In this document: positions 1-1,143 of the stretch, in pieces
Layout: each line of letters starts with the position of its first letter
Position numbering within the stretch: position 1 is the stretch's first letter
Origin: Bremerella volcania
GTDB lineage: Bacteria > Planctomycetota > Planctomycetia > Pirellulales > Pirellulaceae
NCBI RefSeq assembly: GCF_007748115.1
Contig: NZ_CP036289.1
Span: 558,001-622,000 of the forward strand
Direction: 5' to 3'
Length of the DNA: 64,000 bases
Position numbers and translations under genes: made by a program
The notes under the pieces: generated by a model
Databases searched by the model: none
Seen by the model: only the letters and a program-made list of their open reading frames with translations
Told to the model about the DNA's origin: nothing

Positions 1-912
1 GAATGTATATTCCTTTCGGTCCGCGGGTGAAATAAGCCGCAGATTATTGACTTCCTGCAAGATCCGAAATCTCTGCGCCAAGCGATCCGCTTTCGGGCAG
101 CGTTTTTCCCTGGGCTCTAAATCGCAACGTCCGATGATGCTTTTCGGCCAGTACATCTTGCGTTGAAAGAACAAGAGGCCATGTAGCCCAAAGCGTTCTA
201 GCAGCGATTCATCTTTACGACGCGCAACTGGGGTAAGCGGATAGCTGCTTTTGCCTTCCTGGCCGTAACGCAACTTAACCGTGAGTAGCTTAGGATGATA
301 GTTGGCCTGAGCATTCCAAATTTTCTCGAATTCATGTTCGTACATAGCACGAAGCGTATGGCGTCCACGCAGTCGTACCGGAAATGCGTCATTGCCACTA
401 CCAAGATGATAGAGATATTCACCTAACGTCTCGTAGCCAGCAGATGTAATATCTGCATCTAGCTGAGCCATATCCGCTTTGATGCCCTTCAGTTCACTTC
501 CGCCGCTCCGGTCGGTCGTACGATTAGACAGAAAGCCTCTACGTTTTGCTAAATGCAGAAATACGCGGCCGAGTTCATGCGGTGAAAGCTCTTCACGAAG
601 TGCCTTCGCTCGAAGTTCGTACGGGTTCCGTGATAAAACCTTCTCCTGCTCCTGCGGTTCAACTGGGAAAAGACCTGCGTCAACAAGAGCCTTGGTCAAC
701 TGCCGAATCCTTTGAGCACGACGACGAATCTGCCGCCGAATCCCCCGTGCCACGCGGCGGCTTTGCGACTTCGATTTCTCGCCACCTTGCTGATCACGGT
801 CGACACCTTCGGGGAATATTCGCACTCCACAGTCAACTAGAGTGTTTTCAGAAAACAAAGCCCATCCAAGGGAAGTTGGGCCAATGTCGAGGCCAAGAAT
901 AAGATCAGACAT
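1..912 (-). CDS. cas9: CRISPR-associated endonuclease Cas9, N-terminal part (type II, probably II-C)
   Basis: RNA-guided DNA endonuclease; only the first 304 codons are inside the window and the frame is still open at base 1. The reverse strand starts with ATG at 912. RuvC-I is clear: residues 5-17 read ILGLDIGPTSLGW, with the catalytic Asp at residue 9. A bridge helix very rich in Arg spans about residues 52-75, followed by NPYELRAKALRE (96-107) and HLAKRRGFLSNR (120-131), hallmark Cas9 motifs at the start of the REC lobe. Residues 263-292 (CDLEP, then EVNNLRL) match the usual REC-lobe segment. The compact spacing and lack of a long early insertion fit type II-C. HNH, RuvC-II/III and the PAM-interacting domain lie outside the window. 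A candidate tracrRNA gene is divergent, about 90 bp upstream. Cas9 identity is very likely; the subtype is inferred. Confidence 0.93.
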   Translation of the reverse strand, partial: MSDLILGLDIGPTSLGWALFSENTLVDCGVRIFPEGVDRDQQGGEKSKSQSRRVARGIRRQIRRRAQRIRQLTKALVDAGLFPVEPQEQEKVLSRNPYELRAKALREELSPHELGRVFLHLAKRRGFLSNRTTDRSGGSELKGIKADMAQLDADITSAGYETLGEYLYHLGSGNDAFPVRLRGRHTLRAMYEHEFEKIWNAQANYHPKLLTVKLRYGQEGKSSYPLTPVARRKDESLLERFGLHGLLFFQRKMYWPKSIIGRCDLEPREKRCPKADRLAQRFRILQEVNNLRLISPADRKEYTF

Positions 913-999: not shown

Positions 1000-1027
1000 T
1001 TGACACCCCAATTGGAGTGGCTATACT
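1000..1027 (+). promoter_or_regulatory. Near-consensus sigma-70 promoter of the candidate tracrRNA
   Basis: A perfect -35 box TTGACA (1000-1005) and a -10 box TATACT (1022-1027) are separated by 16 bp. The predicted start of transcription is about 1034. No plausible ORF with a ribosome binding site follows, and a terminator lies about 110 bp downstream, so this looks like the promoter of a short non-coding RNA. Confidence 0.7.
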
Positions 1028-1033
1028 TCAGGG

Positions 1034-1143
1034 CGTGTATCTGATTCCTGCCTGTGACTCTTTTCGTAACAAGAATGAAAAATTCGCAGGCACTGCTCTA
1101 CGGAGCAACCAGCCGTCATGTCTAGTGCAGGGCGGCATTTTTT
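1034..1143 (+). ncRNA. Candidate tracrRNA of the type II CRISPR-Cas system
   Basis: A short unit next to and divergent from cas9, bounded by a near-consensus promoter and a T-run terminator, predicted RNA about 110 nt. Three stems are visible. An 8-bp stem (one G-U pair) joins 1050-1057 to 1084-1091. A perfect 5-bp stem with loop TACG is at 1094-1107, in the position expected for a nexus hairpin. A 6-bp stem (one G-U pair) joins 1112-1117 to 1131-1136, followed by six T. Length, location and layout fit a type II-C tracrRNA, with the anti-repeat expected 5' of the nexus stem, roughly 1040-1092. The CRISPR repeat is not in the window, so base pairing with it, the decisive criterion, cannot be shown. 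It could instead be an unrelated small RNA. Confidence 0.6.
1112..1143 (+). terminator. Rho-independent terminator of the candidate tracrRNA
   Basis: Stem GCCGTC (1112-1117) pairs with GGCGGC (1131-1136) with one G-U pair and a 13-nt loop, followed by A and six T at 1138-1143. Confidence 0.65.

What the first reader, a model, noticed from the sequence alone, without database searches (positions are those of the whole stretch)
1000..1143. Divergent short RNA gene beside cas9 is a probable tracrRNA
A perfect TTGACA and a TATACT at 16-bp spacing, a 110-nt unit with a TACG-loop nexus-like stem, and a GCCGTC/GGCGGC terminator with six T follow each other without any ORF. The expected anti-repeat region is about 1040-1092. 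From pairing, a CRISPR repeat beginning near GTGCCTGCGAA would be one prediction.
Basis: partly seen in the sequence, partly recalled or inferred. Interest (0 to 1): 0.78.

Follow-up and report, generated by a model that had tools for sequence, protein, structure and literature searches.

The report
Self-folding tracrRNA beside a Cas9 gene
The short RNA gene next to cas9 is the partner RNA that lets Cas9 use its CRISPR guides, and when alone it is predicted to fold up and hide the part that grips the guide, a habit that related bacteria seem to have kept as their sequences changed.

Summary
The array lies on the same contig, left of the window (21 repeats, 20 spacers). Its repeat pairs with 1035-1070 (-54.9 kcal/mol; mean -18.8, sd 4.1, in 20 kb outside the array).

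Those bases are the interesting part. In the free RNA they are predicted to fold back onto the anti-repeat (1049-1057 with 1084-1092; 1061-1067 with 1075-1081; z -3.73), which breaks the crRNA-bound nexus and leaves the first 15 nt open. Across 97 loci the tail matches its own anti-repeat better than another locus's (z -10.1). It does so in 32 of 48 phylogenetically separate pairs, against 13 (p 0.00086); the pair-test controls are flat. Replication in 20 new loci is weaker (swap p 0.0096). A crRNA-gated fold, opened from a 5' toehold, is the most likely meaning. Function and expression are untested.

The parts
1..912 (-). 5' part of cas9 (1042 aa in full; continues left of the window to genome position 555784; window 1 = genome 558001)
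   Evidence: TIGR01865 cas_Csn1 684.6 bits, HNH_4, RuvC_III; 77% identical to a Blastopirellula marina Cas9
1000..1027 (+). sigma-70-like promoter TTGACA-N16-TATACT of the tracrRNA gene
   Evidence: promoter-like pair with at most 3 mismatches in about 60 nt upstream of the anti-repeat in 52 of 73 loci examined, against 19% of letter shuffles, the -10 ending 4-8 nt before it in 40 of the 52
1034..1143 (+). tracrRNA (about 110 nt), divergent from cas9; start inferred from the promoter, end from the T run
1035..1070 (+). anti-repeat, pairs with the CRISPR repeat (32 predicted base pairs)
   Evidence: duplex -54.9 kcal/mol
1034..1048 (+). 5' part left single-stranded in the free RNA (proposed toehold; 1035-1048 pairs with repeat nt 22-35)
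   Evidence: MFE and centroid; toehold duplex -24.1 kcal/mol; same end free in relatives on average
1049..1057 (+). 5' arm of fold-back helix A (inside the anti-repeat)
1084..1092 (+).
1061..1067 (+). 5' arm of fold-back helix B (inside the anti-repeat)
1075..1081 (+). 3' arm of fold-back helix B (overlaps the nexus)
1073..1085 (+). nexus hairpin GAAT-GAAAA-ATTC, predicted when the anti-repeat is taken up by crRNA, absent from the free fold
   Evidence: fold with repeat added, and fold with the anti-repeat forced open; free fold
1094..1107 (+). second hairpin TGCTC-TACG-GAGCA (UNCG-type loop)
1112..1143 (+). terminator hairpin and T6

Best explanation
A gene for the tracrRNA of the neighbouring cas9-cas1-cas2-CRISPR locus. 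Shown by sequence: promoter just before the anti-repeat, complementarity to the array repeat over nearly its whole length, predicted nexus and hairpins, terminator. Inferred from established type II biology: it pairs with pre-crRNA, a double-strand RNase trims the pair, and Cas9 takes up the complex. Proposed in addition: before crRNA arrives the RNA folds back on itself, the tail covering the part of the anti-repeat opposite repeat nt 1-21 (the part kept in mature guides, recalled) and replacing the nexus. The 5' 15 nt stay open. The 3' third of the repeat lands there and peels the fold open by strand displacement, so that the Cas9-binding shape appears only on a crRNA-tracrRNA pair. I put the tracrRNA identity at about 0.97, the fold-back as a selected feature at about 0.7, and the gating role at about 0.45.
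For: Identity. Fold-back in this RNA: MFE equals centroid, z -3.73; anti-repeat against the first 40 nt of tail better than shuffles, p 0.014. Relatives: 77 loci, Fisher p 7.9e-7 over 39 clusters at 50% Cas9 identity; swapped tails worse than own, z -10.1 over 97 loci, and in 32 of 48 path-disjoint pairs against 13, Wilcoxon p 0.00086; 20 further loci scored with the same test, swap p 0.0096 and Fisher p 0.027. In 67 loci of the non-Bacteroidota type the free-RNA ensemble pairs anti-repeat positions -23 to -16 with the tail at 0.65-0.78 (shuffled tails 0.39-0.50), and the 5' end less than shuffles. Energetics: net gain on binding -35.8 kcal/mol for the 36-nt repeat, -14.9 for 24 nt, -6.0 for 20 nt.
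Against: No expression data. All structures are computed. The effect is weaker in the replication set: 2 of 20 loci individually at p 0.05 or less, and 7 of 20 at p 0.49 or more. A narrower test, upper anti-repeat against tail nt 9-40, gives p 0.011 at 50% and 0.11 at 45% identity. One control, the upstream 40 nt, reached p 0.025 and p 0.0082 in the swap test, though not in the independent-pair tests (p 0.73; 0.57). In this RNA the number of anti-repeat-tail bonds is not above shuffles (15.9 against 17.2, p 0.65). Part of the tail motif (AGG) looks also used to close the second hairpin, so some complementarity has another reason. The full-length repeat beats the fold-back easily, so gating, if any, must be kinetic or act on short crRNAs.
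Confidence: 0.9

Rival explanations
1. An ordinary tracrRNA; the fold-back forms in the free RNA but has no role, or serves only RNA stability, and the complementarity follows from other constraints on repeat and tail.
For: Tail bases AGG seem to pair with CCU beyond the second hairpin in many loci (read by eye), UUC with the nexus; the crRNA outcompetes the fold by 36 kcal/mol; the effect is small or absent in single replication loci and in model systems (recalled sequences).
Against: Own tails beat swapped tails also among relatives at 60-80% Cas9 identity (38 ordered pairs, swap weaker in 74%) and in phylogenetically separate pairs; conserved motifs alone would not give this.
Confidence: 0.4
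2. A long-form tracrRNA (tracr-L) that acts as a natural single guide and represses cas genes.
For: Divergent placement beside the cas9 promoter; tracr-L is described for type II-A (PMC11417352, outline and passages read).
Against: The promoter puts the start at the anti-repeat, leaving no 5' guide and repeat mimic; here the repeat-like stretch lies 3' of the anti-repeat, the wrong side for a guide.
Confidence: 0.04
3. An unrelated small RNA or a leftover repeat beside cas9.
For: None beyond the lack of expression data; Rfam has no match here.
Against: Extended pairing with an intact array, and a tracrRNA at the same place in 96 further loci.
Confidence: 0.02

Closest known systems
tracrRNAs of type II-C CRISPR-Cas9 systems (for example those of N. 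meningitidis and C. jejuni; recalled)
   Same: Anti-repeat, nexus, hairpin(s), terminator; small Cas9; cas9-cas1-cas2-array order; repeat read towards cas2; upstream and reverse orientation, which a metagenome survey found the commonest (reverse 69.8%, upstream 79.2% of candidates; PMC10278012, passages read)
   Different: Tail matches the anti-repeat and is predicted to cover it in the free RNA; not significant for the recalled Nme, Cje, Spy and Sau sequences
Blastopirellula marina DSM 3645 locus (L032)
   Same: Cas9 77% identical; repeat differs at 1 of 36 positions; tracrRNA nearly identical, with the same fold-back
   Different: A few base changes, some in the anti-repeat
tracr-L of type II-A systems
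   Same: A repeat-like stretch inside tracrRNA pairs with its own anti-repeat (recalled)
   Different: There it is 5' and makes a natural guide (guide role: PMC11417352, passages; position recalled); here it is 3' and can only mask

Membership tests
tracrRNA of a type II CRISPR-Cas system | Anti-repeat complementary to the repeat of the associated array | tested here: met
tracrRNA of a type II CRISPR-Cas system | Gene beside cas9, own promoter and terminator | tested here: met
   (sequence only; the terminator scan did not list it because of its 13-nt loop)
tracrRNA of a type II CRISPR-Cas system | Nexus and 3' hairpins after the anti-repeat in the bound state | tested here: met
   predicted fold with repeat
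tracrRNA of a type II CRISPR-Cas system | Transcribed, processed with crRNA, needed by Cas9 | not testable with these tools
   no RNA or protein data
type II-C locus | cas9, cas1, cas2 only, no csn2 or cas4 in the operon; small Cas9 | tested here: met
   cas9 (1042 aa), cas1, cas2 and the array follow each other; cas4 and csn2 were not searched genome-wide
type II-C locus | Cas9 groups with II-C Cas9s in a reference tree | not tested
   only relatives were put in the trees; the PDB matches listed are mostly Cas9s, without subtype
tracr-L natural single guide | 5' extension with guide and repeat mimic aimed at the cas promoter | tested here: not met
   promoter -10 ends at 1027, 7 nt before the first paired anti-repeat base; a second promoter further upstream was not excluded

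The most novel reading that the evidence does not exclude
Many type II-C-like tracrRNAs are folding switches: the tail co-evolves with the CRISPR repeat to mask the anti-repeat and abolish the nexus until the 3' third of a full-length repeat, the part trimmed off later, opens it from a 5' toehold. This would make crRNA the key to Cas9 loading and give the discarded third of the repeat a job.
Probability: 0.42. Interest if true: 0.7.

Novelty: new member of a known kind. Interest (0 to 1): 0.45.

Why it matters
As a tracrRNA it is ordinary and completes an apparently intact Cas9 system, giving the guide scaffold for a new 1042-aa Cas9. If the co-evolving fold-back is functional, it would explain why these anti-repeats pair along nearly the whole 36-nt repeat though mature guides keep only part of it (recalled), and how free tracrRNA could be kept off Cas9. 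It also gives a testable rule for guide design with such Cas9s: repeat truncation costs assembly because it removes the toehold.

Tried and rejected
A search for Cas9_PI (PF16595) in the genome gave nothing, but its controls rang nowhere either; the full Cas9 family gives one match over its cut-off, this gene. Rfam gave no tracrRNA match. The array (1319 bases) has no match in 50,697 phage records, so no PAM could be inferred; plasmids and viral contigs were not searched. A regular expression for tracrRNAs in loci not yet solved was mostly fruitless and was replaced by nhmmer. In this RNA the count of anti-repeat-tail bonds in the ensemble does not exceed shuffles (15.9 against 17.2, p 0.65), though over 41 loci it does (12.4 against 10.1, Wilcoxon p 0.00016); duplex energy separates better. 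The toehold row is void (no-pair values). At 40% identity 74 of 77 loci fall in one cluster and the cluster test has little power (p 0.039, 4 clusters); at 45% p is 0.0011 (19 clusters). Energies from my scripts (-36.1) differ from the folding tool (-37.9), probably because T was not read as U for the special tetraloop. Nine paper searches ran. Five were aimed at a self-folding free tracrRNA, four at neighbouring matters (31, 34, 47, 64). No title or abstract start in their listings describes it (one search listed 25 of 34 papers). Passages were read in PMC10278012, PMC11417352 (also its outline), PMC7606464 and PMC5097132. The library holds open-licence papers only.

Rows dropped: of 91 loci (80; 10; the window's own) 50 had a usable array; 4 had no recognised cas9 frame; of the other 46, 5 had their best site on the cas9 strand (three of these also too weak), leaving 41; 36 were added by homology to these. 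Replication: 40 loci fetched, 25 with arrays examined, 21 kept, 1 removed because its scored stretch was identical to that of L092; another, L131, is close to L092. A first pass over these loci by a whole-locus scan picked repeat copies near the array in several; before any scoring I went back to the rule of the first set, 1.3 kb upstream of cas9. The set of 10 Bacteroidota-type loci was set apart; tests including them are.

Full report
What is there. The window is genome 558001-622000 of a single 6.50-Mb contig. cas9 (1042 aa, TIGR01865 684.6 bits) runs leftwards from window 912, followed by cas1 and cas2, and then a CRISPR array at genome 553061-554415. The array has 21 repeats, 20 of them identical and the leftmost with 12 mismatches, all in its first 12 nt, and 20 spacers (19 of 30 nt, one of 29). 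The residues read as catalytic (D9, E512, H594, N617, H727, D730; roles recalled) are invariant in an alignment of six Cas9s, this one included. The closest named relative is Blastopirellula marina DSM 3645, with Cas9 77% identical.

The RNA gene. Right of cas9 and divergent from it lie TTGACA-N16-TATACT (1000-1027), a stretch with no ORF of 80 aa or more, and a hairpin with six T. The array repeat pairs with 1035-1070 by 32 predicted base pairs, at -54.9 kcal/mol. The 50-nt windows (every 5 nt) of 20 kb on both strands outside the array have mean -18.8, sd 4.1, and the next best site reaches -39.9. With repeat added the RNA is predicted to form that duplex, a small nexus 1073-1085, the hairpin 1094-1107 and the terminator. 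This is a tracrRNA.

Relatives. Of 91 loci (80 named ones, ten stretches of relatives' genomes, and the window's own), 50 had a usable array. Of these, 41 gave a tracrRNA within 1.3 kb upstream of cas9 on the opposite strand, and 36 more were found by homology, 77 in all. A promoter-like pair lies in the roughly 60 nt upstream of the anti-repeat in 52 of 73 examined (19% of letter shuffles), its -10 ending 4-8 nt before the anti-repeat in 40 of the 52.

The fold-back. In the free RNA, MFE and centroid agree that 1049-1057 pairs with 1084-1092 and 1061-1067 with 1075-1081, that the nexus is gone and that 1034-1048 is open (z -3.73, 0 of 200 shuffles as good). The anti-repeat is drawn paired with the tail in the 23 rows from L001 to L052, its closest relatives; L048, L051 and L055 in the same listing fold otherwise. 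I asked whether the tail (first 40 nt after the anti-repeat) fits the anti-repeat better than chance. In the first 41 loci: own mean -17.2, shuffled tails -13.2, swapped tails -13.1 kcal/mol. By clusters of Cas9 at 45% identity (median p per cluster): Fisher p 3.4e-6 (24 clusters), with upstream 0.21, distal tail 0.98 and reversed anti-repeat 0.68 as controls. In 77 loci at 50% identity: p 7.9e-7 (39 clusters), controls 0.025, 0.99, 0.92; at 45% p 0.0011 (19 clusters) and at 40%, with little power, p 0.039 (4 clusters). A narrower version, upper anti-repeat against tail nt 9-40, is weaker: p 0.011 at 50% and 0.11 at 45%.

Co-evolution. Exchanging tails between loci keeps conserved motifs and destroys only the match. 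Own pairs win: 67 loci, own -18.98 against -15.63 (sd 0.37), z -9.0, with reversed anti-repeat z -0.7, upstream z -1.4 and distal z +0.4. Within clusters p is 2e-4 (51 loci). Twenty further loci from a search of 392 genomes of the phylum, scored with the same test, gave swap p 0.0096 and Fisher p 0.027, with swap controls at 0.42 or more; only 2 of 20 loci reach p 0.05 singly, and 7 of 20 are at 0.49 or more. With pairs of loci whose paths on a FastTree Cas9 tree do not overlap, own beats swapped in 29 of 43 against 12 (2 ties; p 0.0021). With no locus left out it is 32 of 48 against 13 (p 0.00086), controls 0.91, 0.57, 0.87. In that last call the upstream control does reach p 0.0082 in the plain swap test, which is why I lean on the pair test. 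Examples of changed but kept pairing, read by eye: L036 (CCUAC/GUAGG), L045, L052, L054, L063, L071; and L078 (GCCUAC/GUAGGC) and L027.

Shape of the mask. Averaged over 67 loci, tail pairing peaks at anti-repeat positions -23 to -16 from its 3' end (0.65-0.78 against 0.39-0.50 with shuffled tails), and is lower than with shuffled tails at the 5' end (0.07-0.16 at -38 to -30 against 0.11-0.29). So the mask covers the part opposite the first two thirds of the repeat and spares the 5' end, where transcription is likely to begin. Binding a 36-nt repeat gains 35.8 kcal/mol net, a 24-nt repeat 14.9 and a 20-nt repeat 6.0; the open 5' end with repeat nt 22-35 alone is worth 24.1. That mature crRNAs keep about 20-24 nt of repeat is recalled knowledge, not tested here.

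Mechanism and limits. Most likely the free RNA waits as a masked hairpin. The 3' third of the repeat in pre-crRNA lands on the open end and displaces the mask, which lets the nexus form, and Cas9 takes up the pair. The pairing and its co-evolution are computed results; the order of events, any effect on Cas9 loading, and expression are inference.

Known or new. Surveys describe type II tracrRNAs as anti-repeat, nexus and hairpins, clustered by Cas9 clade, with many not following the canonical fold (PMC7606464, PMC10278012, passages read). The nearest described self-pairing I know is tracr-L in type II-A, a natural single guide (PMC11417352, outline and passages read), in which the mimic lies on the other side (recalled). 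Searches aimed at a self-masked free tracrRNA listed nothing describing it by title and abstract start; subscription papers are mostly not held. I therefore file the gene as a new member of a known kind and give the switch as the novel case.

Noticed in passing
L001 8061-8096 (genome 553061-553096): The leftmost repeat has 12 mismatches, all in its first 12 nt, while the rest (ending TACACT) is intact; the repeat holds TTGGTC-N16-TACACT, a weak promoter-like pair read by eye, as if each repeat could start the next crRNA.
   Followed up: partly
L053 9530-9700: Beside this gammaproteobacterial cas9, upstream of what looks by eye like the tracrRNA and on its strand, lies a single repeat copy followed by a terminator-like hairpin: a one-unit crRNA-like gene that might regulate cas9.
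   Followed up: no
L044 about 450-500, and L123, L129, L137 upstream of cas9: Single inverted repeat-like copies near cas9, outside the array and, in L044, close to the tracrRNA.
   Followed up: no
L001 8097-9415: No match of the array in 50,697 phage records; targets of this planctomycete's spacers remain unknown.
   Followed up: partly
G002:C80:266650-269769: Of 8 other genomes of the same genus searched, one carries a Cas9 match, a much more distant Cas9 (33% identity over the main stretch) with a different repeat, so cas9 loci may come and go within the genus.
   Followed up: no
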